Assembly: GCA_029531795.1 (NCBI GenBank)
Contig: JAPEIS010000006.1
Location: 1,426,001 to 1,490,000 of the forward strand
Direction: 5' to 3'
DNA from: Sclerotinia nivalis
Taxonomy: Eukaryota; Ascomycota; Leotiomycetes; Helotiales; Sclerotiniaceae
Length of the DNA: 64,000 nucleotides
Below, piece after piece: positions 55,649 through 64,000 of this stretch. The notes under the pieces are model-generated. The model made no database searches. It saw only the letters and a list, made by a program, of their open reading frames with translations, and was not told the DNA's origin. Position numbers and translations under genes: made by a program. Positions within the stretch are counted from its first letter, which is position 1. Every line of letters starts with the position of its first letter.

Positions 55649-57255
55649 ATGGCTCCTAAGAAGACTACTACGGTCTCTAAAGCGGCTGAACCTCATGGGT
55701 ATGAATTTGGTGGACCGTAAGTAGCACAATCCCTTGCAGATTCACTGATCTGTACTGATTGCCTCGCAGAATAGGAGCTTTTGGTATATCCTTCGGACTT
55801 CCCCTTCTCTGCTACGCGACGACGTTTCTCTGCAATGATATTTCTGGATGTCCAGTTCCCTCCTCGCTCTCTCCCTCGACCCTCACAATCAGCAATCTAA
55901 AACAAGAGGTTGGATGGCCAGAAAATGGACTTGCAGGCTTGTCAAGCTGGGATGTATTTCTCAAAGTAGTAGGATACTACCTTCTAAGCATGGTCTTGCA
56001 TAGGATCTTGCCGGGTGAGGAGAAGCTAGGTGTTGAGCTTGCTAGTGGGGGAAAACTCAAGTACAAGTTCAATAGTACGTGTGTCTGCTATACGCGCCAT
56101 TGATCGGGACGCTGTTCGCTAATGCATACCACAGCTTGGTCCTCTACAATCTTTACGTTCGCTCTATGCGCAGCAGGAACTATTGCCCAGGGAGCAGACT
56201 TTCCAGTCTGGACTTTTATCTACGACAATTACCTACAAATTCTTACAGCCAATATCATCATCTCCTACGGTCTTGCCACCTATGTATATATCCGCAGTTT
56301 CAGCGTCAAACCTGGCAATCCCGAGCACCGCGAATTGGCTGCGGGAGGTCATACTGGAAATATGCTATACGATTGGTTTATTGGACGAGAACTCAACCCA
56401 AGAGTAACTCTCCCTCTGCTTGGCGAGATTGATATTAAGGAATTTTGTGAGCTACGACCAGGTCTTATGGGATGGCTTTTGATGGATTACGCATTTGTTG
56501 CCCATCAATACAAGACTTACGGATACGTTACCGACAGTATCTTGTTAATTACAGCTTTCCAAACACTATATGTGCTTGATTCATATTGGATGGAAAATGC
56601 CATCCTCACCACAATGGATATTACCACTGATGGGTTTGGACTCATGCTATCATTTGGAGACTTGGTCTGGGTTCCATTCATCTATTCTCTCCAAGCACGT
56701 TACCTAGCCGTTTACCCCCTTTCTCTCGGCGTTCTTGGCACCAGCGGTGTCCTCGCTGTTCTAGGCACAGGATATTACATCTTCCGTAGCTCCAACAACG
56801 AAAAGAACCGCTTCAGAACCGATCCGACAGATCCCCGTGTCGCACATCTTAAACACCTCGAGACGAAATCCGGCTCCAAACTTCTCATTTCAGGCTGGTG
56901 GGGCGTAGCTCGTCATATCAACTATGCTGGTGATTGGATCATGGCTTGGTCTTACTGTCTTCCTACCGGTATCGCTGGCTATCTCATTAATCACAGCTCG
57001 ATAGCCCCCACATCAGGTCAATCTCTCTCCAATGGTTCATTTGTGTATAGTGGACCAGCAGTACATACGGAAGTCACACAAGGTGCAGCTAGAGGCTGGG
57101 GAATGATCGTTACATATTTCTATGTGGTTTACTTTGGTGTCTTGTTGGTGCATAGAGAAATGAGAGATGAGGAGAAGTGTGAGAGGAAGTACGGTGAAGA
57201 TTGGAAGAGGTACAAGGAGATTGTTAGGTACAGAATCATCCCGGGAATCTATTAG
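55649..57255 (+). CDS. ERG24: Delta(14)-sterol reductase
   Basis: ER-membrane enzyme of ergosterol synthesis that reduces the C14=C15 double bond left by lanosterol 14-alpha-demethylase, using NADPH; it is a target of morpholine fungicides. Three exons, 55649-55716, 55770-56074 and 56135-57255, give 497 aa. Family features are many membrane segments, NMLYDWFIGRELNPR, LRPGLMGWLLMDYAF, SYWMENAILTTMDITTDGFG, and the signature SGWWGVARHINYAGDWIMAW, then YCLPTG, followed by the HREMRDEEKCERKYGEDW tail. The 60-bp second intron restores KYKFNTWSSTIFTFA. All expected parts are present, so it should be functional. It is the last housekeeping gene before the polyketide synthase, which ends 372 bp away in the opposite direction. 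Confidence 0.97.
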
Positions 57256-57627: not shown

Positions 57628-60600
57628 TCAATAATCATCAAGCAAACTCCGTATCTGATCTCCAGCAATCTCAAGAAGTTCCCTAAACCTTTCCACATCC
57701 GAATCATTACCGAAGACAGAAAACGAAACCCTAGAAAGAAAATTAGTACACAAAATTACACACAGCAGGACCATAACACATAACATAACATGCAAACTTA
57801 CGCTTCCCTCTTAACCTCAAAATACACTAAAATACTCCCCGGAAAAGGATACACGAATCCACCCTCCAGCCACCCCGTATTAAAACAACTCGTAACCGCC
57901 CGTTCCGGTTTCATCCTCTGATAAACCGCATCCAGGAATAACGAAGGCGTTTCTTCTCCTTCCTTGATCATCCATTCCAGAGCTAATAAGTGTCGGCTAA
58001 ACCCTCGCCCCTTACTAGCCCGCGTAAGCGATTTCGCATGTTCTTTCGCGGCTTCGTATAGCAATTCTCGCGAATGGATGTTGATGGCGTGTTTGTTGGT
58101 CGCTAGGAATTGGGCCATTAGTGGTGTGGTTATGTGGTGTACTTCTACGCGTCCTTGGCGAAATTGCGCGAGGGAGACGGTTTCGATGGCGCTGGGGTTG
58201 TGGCCGAAGAAGCGGTGATTTGCTAGTTGGATTGCGAGCTGGATTCCGGATTGTGTTGGGAGTCCTTTTTTGGAGAGGAAGTTATGATTTAGATTGTTCA
58301 TTTCTAGATGGGTGAATGAGTATTTGGAAGTTTGTCGTGCGAGACTTTGCCGGATATGTTGTGTGCGATTCTCGAGAATGGGACTAGGTACCAAAGGCAG
58401 GATTTCTGGCGTGTCAGGGTCAGCAGAAACGATTGATCCATTTGTATTCGTGGGGGATTTATGCGAGATGATAGCCTCGTTTATGAATTCATGAAGGACT
58501 TCAATTGTTATACCATCTAATACTGAATGCTCGCAGACGGAAGCCGAGACACCGTTCTTACAAATGACAAATTGTAGTGACTTGTCATACCATCTGTTTG
58601 AGCCATCTCCGAAAAGAAATTGGGAAAATCGTTGTGATGGGGTCTCCGGTGTTGCATCATCGAGACAAACGACGAATGCCGCTGCTTCGATGGTTTTTAT
58701 CGATACTTTGTTGCGTTCGTTTACTTCTAGTAGTGTATTTCTGGCCTATGGCTGATAAGTGATTGTTTGGGAAGATCAAATTATGGAACATACCTTAGCC
58801 CAATTATCCCGATCGTCGGCAGTCAAGATTCCCACCCATGATTTCGGTTCTATTGGTTTATAGATGATCTCCTCAAACTTCGTTTTCAAATCAGAGAATG
58901 TGATGGCTTCGTGATTCTTGGTAAGGTTAATCTTATATCCATGGCCATTGTTGAAGACGACAATGTAGTTCTCATTTGGGTATTCGCGGACAATATCTTC
59001 GTTCAGGTGCGGCTCTCGACAAACATTAAAAAGATAACGATATGCATATGTATCGATCGATTGCCCGTATAATTCTCGTTTGGGTAAAGATTCAGTTTCA
59101 TAACGTTGCTTGAACTTAAGAGCGGCCAATGTAACAATTGTTGCCCTCTCGGCCTGGGTATGAGCGCTGCGACCATTTGGATGTGTGCCAAAGTAACTTT
59201 GAGTCGCGACCAAAGGTGCGCGTTGTCGTAGAAATCTTCGAGTCAGATAAATATCTGATAACCAATTGTCGATCGTCGGATCGTTCTTTCGCTCCAGCAG
59301 ACGAGCTTGTAACATTTGTCCTTGGCCACCAACAAGTTTGAGCTCTTGTGCCAACTGCTTAGTTCTTTCTAGTTCCTCGCTGGAGCAAAATGGACGAGCG
59401 GCATTCACATAGTGTCGAAGAGTGTCTTCTAATGCTGGTAGGGGCTGCTTCGGCAACAAATTTGTGTGAGATTTTGTATGGAACCTTGATGGGCTAGTTG
59501 GTTCAAAAGCGTGCTTATGTTCGGCAGATTGCTCCTGATTGGGAAAATTCTTGATAGATAGTATCCTAGATGCAAGATCGTCAATACTCTGGGCACTAGT
59601 AATAGCTCCGACATCCAAATCAGCACGGAAATTTTGAAAGATCCAATTCCTGAACGTGAATATAATTAGCGAATCCAAGCCAAAGTCTTCAATGGCCATT
59701 TTCATATCAATTAGTTCATAATGCACGGCCATCATAGAAGCGATCTTCTTTTGTACTGTTAGCTTCACAATCCTGTGAGCTTGTGCTTCGGTCTTAGCAT
59801 CTTCCAGGCTGTCATCTGTGGTTCCGGGGGTAGCTTTGTCAAGAGGAGCATTAATAGAAGACTCTTCTTGCTTCCAGATTCCTGGTAGATATTTCAATAA
59901 AGACGAATGAAGCGGAAGCTTGCGTGCTCCACTCAGTTTCGAATCTCGAAGTCCAGTAATGATCTGAGAATAGTATCCGTTCTCATTATTTGAAATTATT
60001 TCAGACTCCAAAATTTGAAACATTTCCCTACGAGAATAAGAACTTCGACCGAGGGACAACTCTTCCTGTTCGGACTGATAATTTTTGGACATAGGTGATA
60101 GATTAGCCATATCCACATGAATGAGTTTCGTTCTCGGGCGCAAGTGTGATTCTATGAAAGCTTTTCTAGAGGAAGATATAGCACATTCGATGGATCCATT
60201 TCTTGCTCTAGGAAAAACAAAGGAGCTGGAGATTATGATGAGGAAGTCTAAGATTTCTGGGCTTATGTACGACATTAAGACATCGATATAGTTGAAGTCT
60301 CCCTCAATATAAGCTGCTGCATCGTCTGCGGTGGCCGGATTAACCTTAGTTAAAGATTAGCTGAATGTTACTATCAGATTTATGTGGGATGTAATAACTT
60401 ACTGTCAAAAATAATTCAGTCCATATCATGCCTCTAATTGGAGGAGCATCATGTAAATGAGTCGAAATGTCGTCAATGGATGAGACAATTCTAATATTTC
60501 TTTCTTCATGGGCCAGCCACTTCTCGATTTTAGTTTTTTCTTCCCAAGATCCCGTGAAAAGTATCAAGATATTCCTTGCTCCATGTAATAGAAGGAACTT

Positions 60601-63600
60601 GTACATATCCACAGTCAAGATGATCGAGTTCCCAACGACAAAATACGTGGCCTCGTCGGTGAAGATTAATGGAGAGGGCATTGAGACTAGATTCACCGTT
60701 GCAGTATCACTCGCTTCTAAAACAATTTGACCAGTAAGATTCTCTTGTTCGATACGATTGACGGCACTGTCAACATCTCCAATATTCATCGTGAGGACTG
60801 GTCTAATTGAACGAGGATTATGATTCTTGAACATTAAGTTGACATGCCTCATGAGCTCTGCCATTCTTTGGGGTTGTAGTTCAGATGTTGCCGCTAGATC
60901 TAACGAAATGAGAGAGATTTTTTTCTCGAATATATCTGAGCTGGTTGATAATTTGGATGATATATCAGAGCTTCCGATTTTAACAAAGGTACCAAAGCGA
61001 GCCAAACAGGCCATGCTCTCCTCGATGAATTGTATGTCTTCCGCGCTTAAATGGAGAATAACTTGCGGTCCTTCAATACCCGCGAGGCGCAGGATAGCCA
61101 ACTTGTACGTTGAAACGTCACGTGGAAAGACGATTATATCGTTAGATAATTTATAATTATCTATTAGAGACTGTCGATGTTCTGATCTGGTGATAACCGC
61201 TATTATATTGGCTCCGATATATCTCGCAACCTGAATAGCGGCATGGCCAACAGGGGAATCTGCATCATGAATCACGACCATCTGCCCCTTCCTAATCCTT
61301 GCAACCTCGAGCAAAGCATGGAAGGCCATCATAAATGTCGTCGGTATACATGCAGCCTCGCCTAAAGATATCGATTTAGGATACCGACACACGTCGTCGG
61401 CATTTACTCTGATGCTGTTGGCAAAAACAGCTTTCGACCAGCCGCATATTTGGTCCCCAACTTTCCAATAATCTTGGTGGCCAGCGGCGATCACAGTTCC
61501 GGCAAATCCACCGACGATTGAATGTCCAGATTCTGGTTGTGAATTGCCAAAACTAGCCGAGAGTTCTTCTGTATATACACTCCATGCTTCTACCTTAACC
61601 TCAATATCACCAGGATTCAATGTAGCCTTTGACAAATTGTTTGCGGTAAATTGAAAAGTAGCACTATTGGTGCATCTACCTCGTAGCGGCTGGATAATAT
61701 CTTTGGGTTGATGATAGAGTACTGACTGCGTGGTCGCATCAGAGAGTGATGTCATTTGGTATTTTCTTTTTGGTTTCAACCGAGGAATGAGAATTTTCCC
61801 ATCTCTGTATATGTAATCTGTGTCGGTAGAAGATTTTTCTCGAAAAAATGACGCGTTGAATATACTATTAATCTTTTGGTCAAGGTCATCAAAGTTAATA
61901 GATTCCCCCTGAATGTCAAGTGTGACGAAGTTGATCGCTTGGTTCTGAATGCGAACTCCTCGCGCAAATCCTGTGGCAAGGCCAGAAAGCCTCCTAGAAA
62001 GTTTTGGTGGGTATCTAGCTGTAATAATCCAGAGAATGTTTTTTGCTTCTGCGATGACTTTTAATAGACCGCCAATCACTTGAGATGAAGAGCTCAGCAA
62101 CGAACTATTGAGGGAATCATCAATAATCACATACACAGCTTCCTTATCGGTGTTCTGTGATGAAATATGCGGTGTAGAAGACCGGAAAGAAAGCTTCTGA
62201 AGCTTCTGTCCCAGAAGACTTCGGACAGTCCCGCTATCATCGTGAACTAAATATGAAGGGCGAATTGTTGACTTTTCTTGGGACAATGGAATAGCCTTAG
62301 ACACAATCATAGATGTCGTCCTACTTGGCCCGTCTTCGTCATGCTTAATAAACTCGCAGCCATTAAATCCTCCCTGCAAGAGTCGAAAATTCCATTGTTC
62401 AGTTGACAAAAGAGGAGCGCCCTCTCTACCGTCCGTTCGATCTGAATTCGTCATCAGCTAAACAATCCGGATAAAAAGAGGTTGAATGTGATACTTACTC
62501 ATGTACCAGCCTGGAAGCAAGCCAAATATAGCACTGACAAATGGCTCGAGCCGAGTAATCTCGATGAGTATCAGTCTACCACCTATCTTAAGTAATTTCC
62601 TCACGTTTGTCATCGACTCATCAATGGATCTGCTAGCGTGAATAGAATTGTATGCTATAATCAAATCGTACGTCCCAGCCTCAAACTTCTGTTCCATAGG
62701 GTCTTTGCTGCAGTCGAACGTTTTGAGGCATAGATGATTTTGCCATCTTTGAAGCAAAGCTCTAGCATTTTCGAAAAACCAAGGTGATATATCGGTAAAG
62801 TCATATTGTCTGAGAGGAAGATTTCCATCTTGGCTTAATTTTTCGAAGAGAGGTAATGTAGCCGATGCTGTACCTGCGCCAATTTCTAAAACTTTCATAT
62901 TTGGGTTTTTGAATGCGAGCTTCTTCACATATGTACCCAGGAAATGGTGGCACTGTCGTGCCCCCGTACCTTCTGCATATATTCGTCGTAGAAGGTCATG
63001 TTCCAGGAGAAGTTGTAGTGGATCTATCCTGCCCGATAGAATTGACTTTAGATTCGTCCCTATACGCATTACAGCCTCTGCATCCACCCCAAGACCTCGT
63101 ACGTCTTGCACGGGAAATTTGGAATGTTTGACACGTGACGAATTAGTTTTGAAGCTTTTTAATTGTACCATCCATTCGTAGTACATGGCATATTTGCTTT
63201 CAACGTCTTTCTCGTCGATTGTATTCAGGCATGCATCAATATAGTACCACGCCTGATCATTCAAGATTTTTAGCCTGTTCTCTGGTGTGAAAACAGAACT
63301 CTGGTGTTTTTCGACTTTCGAATGTAATTCAGGCTGGGAATAGTCCAGGTCCAATCCCCACTCTACGTTGTAACAGAAAGACGGATCAAAACCTATAGAG
63401 CAATATCCTGACCCAGCCGTCCTTCGAAACCCAGCTTCCCTAATTTGCACGCATTTCAATCTCTTTTGTGATGATGTCCTTTGGAAAGCAGAAACATCGG
63501 ATGAGGTAGAGCTTGAGGTTGTCGATTTCAACCTCGTCATAAACGAAAGTCGTTGTCCGGGATTGTTCAAGACATTCGCTGAAATAACGACTTCTCGTAT

Positions 63601-64000
63601 ATAAATAGGAACCATTACATCCGAACCAGACGATTGTGTAGACGTCGACAACACCAGGCCTGAGTGAATAAGAGCATCTAACGTAGTAGGGTGAATGACA
63701 TGTGGTTGCATAAATCCTCCAGGCATCGTCTCTGCAACATTTGGTACAGTTATTTTACCGATAGCTTCAGAGTCTCCAAGCATGAAATCTGTAATTGCTG
63801 CAAAACTTGGTCCCCAATAGTTTCCAGTCGACTCGAGTTGTTGGTAGAAGGTCTTTTCGTCGAGTTTGTGATACAAATTATTTTCGAGATCCACCAGACG
63901 TTCTTCCGCAACTCTCGCCGCATGGTCTTGTTCTTGCTTAAAATCACCCAAAGCAGAATCGTCTACGTTTGAAGGAACATCGTGAGCGAGCTCTATCTTA
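57628..64000 (-). CDS. Highly reducing-type polyketide synthase with C-terminal carnitine O-acyltransferase, 5' part beyond the window
   Basis: Iterative type I synthase on the minus strand; its KS, AT and DH start lie past position 64000. Visible exons are 62499-64000+, 60403-62441, 58794-60344, 57802-58745 and 57628-57730, all frame-consistent. In protein order: DH end (HPTTLDALIHSG, Asp codon 63676-63678); a YNVEW linker and C-methyltransferase with SAM motif VLEIGAGTASATLPLFEKL; ER-like domain (GGFAGTVIAAG; cofactor motif changed to HDADSPVGHAA); KR-like domain with the Gly-rich loop replaced (VVGNSIILT) and GSIECAISSS where the active-site Tyr and Asn belong; ACP with FGLDSL (Ser codon 59670-59672); then a cAT of about 580 residues with RWYDKSLQFVI and the catalytic His in CEHSVLDG (His codon 58527-58529). 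The cAT probably releases the product by transesterification, as shown for a Trichoderma virens synthase. Product unknown. Confidence 0.92.

What the first reader, a model, noticed from the sequence alone, without database searches (positions are those of the whole stretch)
60100..60660. Ketoreductase domain of the synthase appears catalytically dead
Where KR domains carry a Gly-x-Gly-x-x-Gly loop the sequence reads VVGNSIILT. Where the catalytic Tyr and Asn are expected (a Q-A-N-Y-A-A-G-N-type motif) it reads GSIECAISSS. The surrounding fold is recognisable (GARNILIL, PPIRGMIW, then FLIIISSS) and the frame is open, so the domain was kept while its chemistry was lost. The synthase may leave beta-keto groups unreduced or need a reductase in trans, which would change the expected product class.
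Basis: partly seen in the sequence, partly recalled or inferred. Interest (0 to 1): 0.75.

Follow-up and report, generated by a model that had tools for sequence, protein, structure and literature searches.

The report
Fungal polyketide synthase with dead ketoreductase
A large fungal enzyme that builds small molecules has kept the fold of its ketone-reducing part but lost that part's working residues, as have its closest relatives, while the dehydratase that normally acts just after it looks intact, so its product and mechanism should differ from those of its known cousins.

Summary
The window's minus strand carries most of a 3,137-residue KS-AT-DH-MT-ER-KR-ACP-cAT polyketide synthase (8 exons, no frameshift). 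Its KR lacks the glycine loop (GGLGGLG becomes VGNSIIL), the LSR Arg, the Lys, the catalytic Tyr (now Glu) and the Asn (now Ser); the Ser remains. A Rossmann fold is still predicted. A 58-bp intron splits the domain.

The loss is old. All five Sclerotiniaceae orthologues lack the loop; the four whose models cover the active site also lack Tyr and Asn. Among 65 cAT-ended synthases the KR is eroded in 20, in two clades; 45 of 45 others keep GG and Tyr. In clade I the ER loop is lost too.

The surprise is what was kept: the DH His/Asp pair survives in 19 of the 20, DH profile scores match those of KR-intact relatives, and clade II also keeps its ER. A profile found no short-chain reductase in the 103 kb examined around the gene.

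Most likely this is an in-cis non-reducing, C-methylating synthase on a highly reducing scaffold, released by the acyltransferase, whose DH has another job. A trans-acting reductase is the main rival. Product unknown. New variant of a known kind.

The parts
57628..64000 (-). Part of the PKS gene inside the window (most of exon 4 and exons 5-8; the gene starts beyond the window at extended coordinate 67665). Eight exons, 3137 aa, KS-AT-DH-MT-ER-KR-ACP-cAT
   Evidence: gene model with seven GT-AG introns; 100% match to P0001 over residues 1600-2560; Pfam domains
60066..60663 (-). KR domain, catalytically dead by sequence (aa about 2186-2365)
   Evidence: alignments; profile scores; AF2 Rossmann fold
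60613..60648 (-). Degenerate NADPH loop, TYFVVGNSIILT in place of T-Y-x-x-x-G-G-L-G-G-L-G
60345..60402 (-). 58-bp intron (gtaagt...ctaag) inside the KR
   Evidence: protein P0001 uses the same junction
60168..60197 (-). Degenerate active site GSIECAISSS: Tyr position is Glu, Asn position is Ser
63496..64000 (-). DH domain, part inside the window (includes HPTTLDALIH with the catalytic Asp at 63693-63664; the His motif lies at extended coordinate 64296-64267, beyond the window); conserved
   Evidence: 21 of 21 near-invariant columns kept; AF2/Foldseek match to PsoA, CurK and LovB DH
62420..63258 (-). C-methyltransferase domain (approximate ends), SAM motif VLEIGAGT present
60709..61641 (-). ER domain, degenerate (NADPH loop IHDADSPVGHAA where KR-intact relatives have e.g. 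IHAAAGGVGQAA)
   Evidence: 19 of 32 near-invariant columns kept
59556..59798 (-). ACP with phosphopantetheine Ser (EDFGLDSL)
57628..59468 (-). C-terminal choline/carnitine O-acyltransferase (cAT) release domain, catalytic His in VCEHSVLDG
   Evidence: Pfam PF00755, 7.8e-131 in P0001

Best explanation
The KR is a pseudo-domain: a Rossmann fold kept as architecture in an intact, conserved synthase that can no longer bind NADPH or reduce a beta-ketone (shown by sequence; not assayed). The synthase therefore extends and C-methylates its chain without in-cis keto reduction and hands it from the ACP to the cAT, which releases it onto an alcohol or water (inferred from characterised PKS-cATs). The chain keeps most of its beta-keto groups, so a C-methylated pyrone, enol or aromatic product is expected (inferred). 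The conserved DH acts on something other than a KR product of its own enzyme, most simply the cyclodehydration of the keto chain (inference; the weakest step).
For: Catalytic columns: Tyr present in 2 of 12 clade I, 3 of 8 clade II, 45 of 45 others; loop second Gly 0 of 12, 3 of 8, 45 of 45; Arg 0 of 12, 0 of 8, 45 of 45; Lys 1 of 12, 0 of 8, 44 of 45. All seven of G1, G2, G4, Arg, Lys, Ser, Tyr are kept together in 44 of 45 others and in 0 of the 20. KR profile medians are 10, 21 and 170 bits, against DH 203, 229, 201 and ACP 53, 63, 58. The gene is whole: 8 exons, no frameshift; KS 66/68, AT 51/55, DH 21/21, ACP 5/6, cAT 30/33 near-invariant columns kept, against ER 19/32 and KR 7/18. Orthologues in five other species share the lost loop, four of them also the lost Tyr and Asn. 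Two paralogous PKS-cATs in the same genome keep KR motifs, so the loss is specific to this gene. The ER loop is lost with the KR in clade I (0 of 12 keep either of the first two Gly, two of them gaps), so no later reductive step seems kept in cis. No short-chain reductase found in the 103 kb examined.
Against: DH His/Asp conservation (11 of 12 clade I, 8 of 8 clade II) is most simply explained by a beta-hydroxy substrate, which argues for reduction by another enzyme. Clade II keeps its ER as well (median 306 bits against 313 in others), which makes little sense for a fully unreduced chain. Erosion is not uniform: 5 of the 20 keep the Tyr (P0012, P0121, P0158, P0160, P0170), P0121 also keeps Asn, Lys and part of the loop and scores 79 bits, above the lowest KR-intact protein (57), so loss of activity across clade I may not be one event. 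No product is known to me for any KR-eroded member.
Confidence: 0.55

Rival explanations
1. A reductase encoded elsewhere works in trans: a stand-alone ketoreductase, or the KR of another synthase, reduces the ACP-bound ketone, and the intact DH then makes the alkene. In clade II the intact ER would follow.
For: DH conserved at the level of KR-intact synthases, and ER conserved in clade II. The one clade I protein that lost the DH pair (Flavoplaca P0123) also has an ER score of 0 and a KR score of -2, as if the DH is dropped when truly idle; its model may be incomplete.
Against: No short-chain reductase found in the 103 kb examined, where the same profile found 6 of 6 held-out genomic reductases. 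No fungal trans-acting ketoreductase turned up in the one paper search for that phrase. The ER loop is lost in clade I.
Confidence: 0.33
2. The gene is a decaying pseudogene and the KR is simply further gone than the rest.
For: Several catalytic losses in one domain; KR is the least conserved domain among orthologues (mean identity 0.695, against ER 0.72 and KS 0.90).
Against: Intact 3,137-codon frame with canonical introns; high conservation of KS, AT, DH, ACP, cAT columns; orthologues in five other species with the same degenerate loop and, in four, the same S-[IV]-E-C-A-I active site.
Confidence: 0.03
3. The KR is still an enzyme, using a new residue set (for example the conserved Glu in S-[IV]-E-C-A-I) for a non-reductive task such as enolisation or epimerisation.
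For: The Glu is present in 5 of 5 Sclerotiniaceae sequences that cover the site; non-reducing bacterial KRs exist (recalled), and a C2-type KR (3qp9) is at rank 22 of the Foldseek list.
Against: KR is the least conserved domain among orthologues; other clade I members do not share the motif. The C2-type comparison rests on recall plus one fold hit.
Confidence: 0.05
4. Gene-model or assembly artefact: the real exon carries the active site elsewhere.
For: The domain is split by an intron; the S. sclerotiorum model P0004 lacks the stretch altogether.
Against: No intact Tyr/Asn or loop motif seen in the region; the same residues in the assemblies of four other species; a continuous KR alignment across the junction.
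Confidence: 0.02

Closest known systems
PKS-cAT synthases: Tv6-931 (Trichoderma virens), LtbA (luteodienoside A, Aspergillus luteorubrus), MaPKS17a (Metarhizium)
   Same: KS-AT-DH-MT-ER-KR-ACP order with a fused C-terminal carnitine acyltransferase (LtbA: PMC10901484, parts 1-2 of 4 read; Tv6-931 and MaPKS17a seen only through citing papers). The window protein keeps a cAT His and a SAM motif.
   Different: LtbA makes a 3-hydroxy diene acid and MaPKS17a polyunsaturated products, so their KRs presumably work; here KR and ER look dead. I did not align these three proteins.
Lovastatin nonaketide synthase LovB and PsoA (solved fungal PKS structures)
   Same: Best matches in the PDB to the KR-region profile (that profile mixes dead and KR-intact rows) and among the best to the DH profile; the DH model's fold matches both.
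   Different: PsoA and LovB keep the Tyr-type KR as far as recalled; the printed PsoA alignment shows SSISV...QANYVAANN. LovB needs a separate ER, LovC (passage in PMC6158276).
Fungal non-reducing PKS (SAT-KS-AT-PT-ACP)
   Same: Expected chemistry: no beta-keto reduction.
   Different: No SAT domain in the Pfam scan of P0001; DH, MT, ER-type and KR-type regions present; cAT at the C-terminus.
Non-reducing (C-type) KRs of bacterial modular PKS
   Same: A KR fold kept without ketoreduction (recalled; fold hit 3qp9).
   Different: Those sit in one module of an assembly line (recalled); here every cycle of an iterative enzyme would be affected.

Membership tests
PKS-cAT (HR-PKS with C-terminal carnitine acyltransferase) | KS-AT-DH-MT-ER-KR-ACP-cAT domain order | tested here: met
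   PF00755 at 2573-3087 of P0001; the KR is recognised below Pfam's cut-off only
PKS-cAT (HR-PKS with C-terminal carnitine acyltransferase) | cAT catalytic His, ACP Ser, KS Cys-His-His, AT Ser present | tested here: met
Highly reducing PKS (by function) | KR with GxGxxG loop and Lys-Ser-Tyr-Asn | tested here: not met
   only Ser of the four kept
Highly reducing PKS (by function) | DH His/Asp | tested here: met
   HAVDGRLVFP and HPTTLDALIH; 21/21 columns
Highly reducing PKS (by function) | ER with NADPH loop (not required: the loop's second Gly is missing in 21 of 45 KR-intact PKS-cATs) | tested here: not met
   loop DSPVG, 19/32 columns
Non-reducing PKS | SAT domain | tested here: not met
   none among the 19 Pfam families of P0001
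Non-reducing PKS | PT domain | tested here: inconclusive
   the region matches Pfam's DH models and DH structures; no PT model among the 25 best of 43 NCBIfam matches, a bacterial and archaeal library
Non-reducing PKS | Unreduced poly-beta-keto product | not testable with these tools
   needs product chemistry

The most novel reading that the evidence does not exclude
Fungi have turned highly reducing cAT-synthases into non-reducing ones at least twice, not by losing the reductive domains but by killing the KR and re-using the DH (in clade II perhaps the ER too) for a step that needs no ketoreduction in cis, such as cyclodehydration of a C-methylated keto chain: a second route to unreduced fungal polyketides, independent of the SAT/PT non-reducing synthases.
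Probability: 0.3. Interest if true: 0.75.

Novelty: new variant of a known kind. Interest (0 to 1): 0.5.

Why it matters
Product prediction for fungal synthases often starts from domain names; here the architecture says 'highly reducing' while the residues say no in-cis keto reduction. Two clades of KR-dead synthases with conserved DH give a natural experiment on what a DH does without its KR, and on whether fungi use trans-acting ketoreductases. The Sclerotiniaceae members include crop pathogens (recalled); no held paper names the S. sclerotiorum orthologue SS1G_07098 together with Sclerotinia and polyketide synthase.

Tried and rejected
Pseudogene: rejected; my first guess at intron 1 seemed to give a frameshift in the KS, but that was a mis-set acceptor, and the correct one (CCATAG ending at extended coordinate 66949) gives an open frame. 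Catalytic Tyr to Cys, my first reading by eye, was off by one; the alignments place Glu there. A stand-alone reductase: the PF00106 genome search listed none on this contig, but only 19 of 177 candidates were scored, so a local profile was used. The neighbouring ERG24-type sterol reductase (56104-57255) was considered as 'the reductase' and rejected: an ERG4/ERG24 family member, one of three loci with such matches in the genome. dN/dS by domain was not done: I held no coding DNA of fungal relatives. The pdb_via fold comparison was unavailable and not repeated. KR-eroded labels rest on MAFFT alignments; the independent check is the profile scores, where P0121 (79 bits) overlaps the KR-intact range (57-193). 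An NCBIfam scan for a PT domain was uninformative. Rows dropped: 38 of the 120 proteins listed entered the first alignment; left out were P0030, P0032, P0034, P0040-P0042 and P0045-P0120, many of them bacterial or hybrid by their labels. The near-invariant columns use the other 30 rows of that alignment (P0012 and P0014 left out as suspected KR-dead; cAT columns needed only 6 rows). The PKS-cAT census took the 65 proteins with PF00755 that I found in the lists (120 of 157 hits shown); several are partial models, and 21 of 65 have a gap at the KS Cys column. The first tree used 52 of the 65.
Full report
What is there. The finding lies in the minus-strand gene that runs off the right end of the window. 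With the flanking contig I built a model of eight exons and 3,137 residues, from extended coordinate 67665 down to 57628, with seven GT-AG introns and no frameshift. A database protein of a contig of the same length (P0001, 3,104 aa, listed as the window's own) matches at 100% over the searched part and lacks my last short exon; that exon's translation resembles the C-termini of P0002-P0004 and P0006. Domains by Pfam are KS, AT, DH, methyltransferase, zinc-dehydrogenase type (ER), ACP and choline/carnitine acyltransferase: the PKS-cAT architecture. The contig length given for a paralogue found by search (P0126, Sclerotinia nivalis, 2,425,423 bases) equals that of contig C12 of this genome, so the source is probably Sclerotinia nivalis (inference).

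The observation. The KR spans about 60663-60066 and is split by a 58-bp intron at 60402-60345, so the claim that the frame is open is not quite right. Against KR-intact relatives the NADPH loop GGLGGLG is VGNSIIL, the LSR Arg is Thr, the stretch around CDV is deleted, the Lys is gone, Tyr is Glu and Asn is Ser; the SS motif is kept. Pfam's KR model scores 15.3 bits, below its cut-off of 22.6, where the segment of a KR-intact relative (P0124) scores 177.6. That it is a KR remnant at all is beyond chance: 17.2 bits with a profile of 17 non-cAT fungal synthases, 0 of 1000 shuffles as high. AlphaFold2 on a 10-sequence alignment gives an alternating Rossmann-type fold, mean pLDDT 69, pTM 0.72; the first nine 10-residue blocks are at 78-91, but later parts are weaker and the loop just before the former Tyr (135-142) is below 50. 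The best Foldseek matches in the PDB are Rossmann enzymes of the short-chain reductase and nucleotide-sugar kinds, with the human fatty acid synthase psi/KR at rank 5; TM-scores by query are 0.41-0.60 in the 50 rows listed. So the fold is kept with moderate confidence.

The rest of the enzyme. Against columns at least 90% conserved in 30 other synthases, the window protein keeps KS 66/68, AT 51/55, DH 21/21, MT 3/4, ACP 5/6 and cAT 30/33, but ER 19/32 and KR 7/18. The ER loop reads DSPVG where KR-intact relatives mostly read GGVG or similar. Both NADPH domains thus look dead, while the others look usable. The DH is the odd one out, since its normal substrate is the KR's product. Its model (pLDDT 78, pTM 0.81) matches fungal PsoA and LovB and bacterial CurK DHs.

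Orthologues. Five Sclerotiniaceae proteins (Stromatinia cepivora, Sclerotinia trifoliorum, S. sclerotiorum SS1G_07098, Ciborinia camelliae, S. borealis) are 67-87% identical over the searched residues 1600-2560, and none has a precomputed Pfam KR. All five share the VxGNSxIL loop. Four of five also show the S-[IV]-E-C-A-I active site; the S. sclerotiorum model lacks that stretch, so it neither supports nor contradicts. Among the six proteins the KR is the least conserved domain (mean identity 0.695, against 0.72 ER, 0.77 DH, 0.80 cAT, 0.90 KS).

Breadth. Three protein searches gave 65 proteins with the cAT domain. On a tree from AT, DH, MT, ACP and cAT only, KR-eroded members fall into two groups: clade I of 12 (the six Sclerotiniaceae, Loekoesia and Flavoplaca, which are lichen fungi by recall, and four unnamed) and clade II of 8 (Aspergillus californicus, A. 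cavernicola, A. spinulosporus and five unnamed), each with FastTree support 1.0. Support was weaker in the IQ-TREE run on 52 of them: clade II 100, but clade I as a whole 58 (71 without P0150). There clade I groups with KR-intact P0124 and P0130 at 100, and clade II with other KR-intact proteins at 88. Profiles trained on 17 non-cAT synthases give KR medians of 10 bits (clade I, range -2 to 79), 21 (clade II, 4 to 37) and 170 (45 others, 57 to 193); ER 197, 306 and 313; DH 203, 229 and 201; ACP 53, 63 and 58. Residue counts say the same: catalytic Tyr 2/12, 3/8, 45/45; Arg 0/12, 0/8, 45/45; DH His 11/12, 8/8, 43/45 (two gaps); DH Asp 11/12, 8/8, 45/45. G1, G2, G4, Arg, Lys, Ser and Tyr are all kept in 44 of 45 others and in none of the 20.

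Points against a simple picture. Flavoplaca P0123 has lost the DH pair and scores 0 for ER. ER erosion is not special to clade I: the second Gly of the ER loop is kept in only 24 of 45 KR-intact proteins, and at least 14 of them score 58-153 bits for ER, below the clade I median. Five of the 20 keep the Tyr, and P0121 in clade I keeps Tyr, Asn, Lys and part of the loop (79 bits), so clade I may contain more than one loss of activity; two losses in all is the simplest count, not a proven one.

Rates. Between the window protein and P0121, identity is AT 0.49, DH 0.45, MT 0.47 but psiKR 0.24, ER 0.32, KR 0.19; between KR-intact P0124 and P0130 it is AT 0.51, DH 0.60, MT 0.51, psiKR 0.38, ER 0.63, KR 0.52 (two of the 17 pairs computed). 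I read this as the reductive core being released from constraint while the DH was not.

Same genome. Two other PKS-cATs (contigs C3 and C12) keep KR motifs: GGLGDLG and GQANY in C3, where the Asn lies past an apparent exon end and was not checked; SQANYAAGN in C12, with GGLGGLG in its protein P0126. The loss belongs to this gene, not to the organism.

Surroundings. Right of the gene lie a methyltransferase-like ORF pair (by eye; no Pfam hit in either piece), an alpha/beta hydrolase, a fungal-rhodopsin-domain protein, a second hydrolase and a probable transcription factor (by eye), then a SET-domain-like ORF (by eye) that looks housekeeping. Left lies an ERG24-type sterol reductase; of six further ORFs scanned, one is an isocitrate/isopropylmalate dehydrogenase, one matches a Rua1-type regulator and four have no hit. 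A short-chain-reductase profile found 6 of 6 held-out genomic reductases and the C12 KR (E 6e-5) but nothing with E below 1 in the 103 kb examined. Introns could hide a small-exon gene, and other reductase folds were not scanned for.

Mechanism. Shown by sequence: no recognisable NADPH loop or catalytic Tyr/Asn/Lys in the KR, a degenerate ER, and present residues for extension, methylation, dehydration and cAT transfer. Inferred: no in-cis keto reduction; release by the cAT onto an alcohol or water, as reported for LtbA, Tv6-931 and MaPKS17a (PMC10901484, parts 1-2 of 4 read). Open: why the DH is kept. Repurposing (cyclodehydration) and a trans reductase both fit; clade II, which keeps its ER as well, leans towards trans reduction, and clade I, which lost it, leans towards repurposing.

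Literature. Searches for inactive, degenerate or non-functional KR in fungal or highly reducing synthases, and for trans-acting ketoreductases, showed no paper in their listings or in the passages I read that describes a KR-dead PKS-cAT. Only open-licence PMC papers were searched; one search listed 20 of 50 papers, of which I read into PMC10901484 and, earlier, passages of PMC9495618; PMC6158276 and PMC10512364 were seen as passages. The S. sclerotiorum metabolite-cluster and genome papers do not mention 'carnitine' in the main text (passages only). Hang 2017 on Tv6-931 is not held.

Verdict.

Noticed in passing
window 60709-61641 (-): The ER domain of the same synthase has also lost its GGVG NADPH loop and 13 of 32 near-invariant columns.
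   Followed up: yes
P0125, P0127, P0014, P0168, P0158, P0170, P0132, P0160 (clade II, incl. Aspergillus californicus): A second clade of PKS-cATs has an eroded KR but intact DH and ER, which would fit a ketoreductase in trans; a C-methyltransferase motif was absent in three of the four examined and off-consensus in the fourth.
   Followed up: partly
L013 (C3:1040001-1050000) and L014 (C12:1944001-1954000): The genome holds two more PKS-cAT synthases with KR motifs.
   Followed up: partly
P0143, P0145, P0147, P0156, P0161, P0162: Six of the 45 KR-intact PKS-cATs lack the cAT catalytic His in the alignment (Asn in five, Leu in one); their release domain may be dead or misaligned.
   Followed up: no
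window 56104-57255 (+): An ERG24-type sterol reductase gene ends about 370 bp from the end of the synthase gene, convergent with it.
   Followed up: partly
P0004 (S. sclerotiorum SS1G_07098): The public gene model skips the KR active-site stretch; possibly a false annotated intron, not checked on DNA.
   Followed up: no
P0123 (Flavoplaca sp.): This relative has lost KR, ER and the DH catalytic pair in one PKS-cAT; the model may be incomplete.
   Followed up: no
L009 5662-7709 and L010 5742-8125: Possible cluster genes next to the synthase: methyltransferase-like ORFs, alpha/beta hydrolase, probable fungal transcription factor.
   Followed up: partly
intron 2 of the PKS gene, extended coordinates 66422-66154: A 269-bp intron with repeated TTGAATGA-like units, longer than the other six (48-71 bp).
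   Followed up: no
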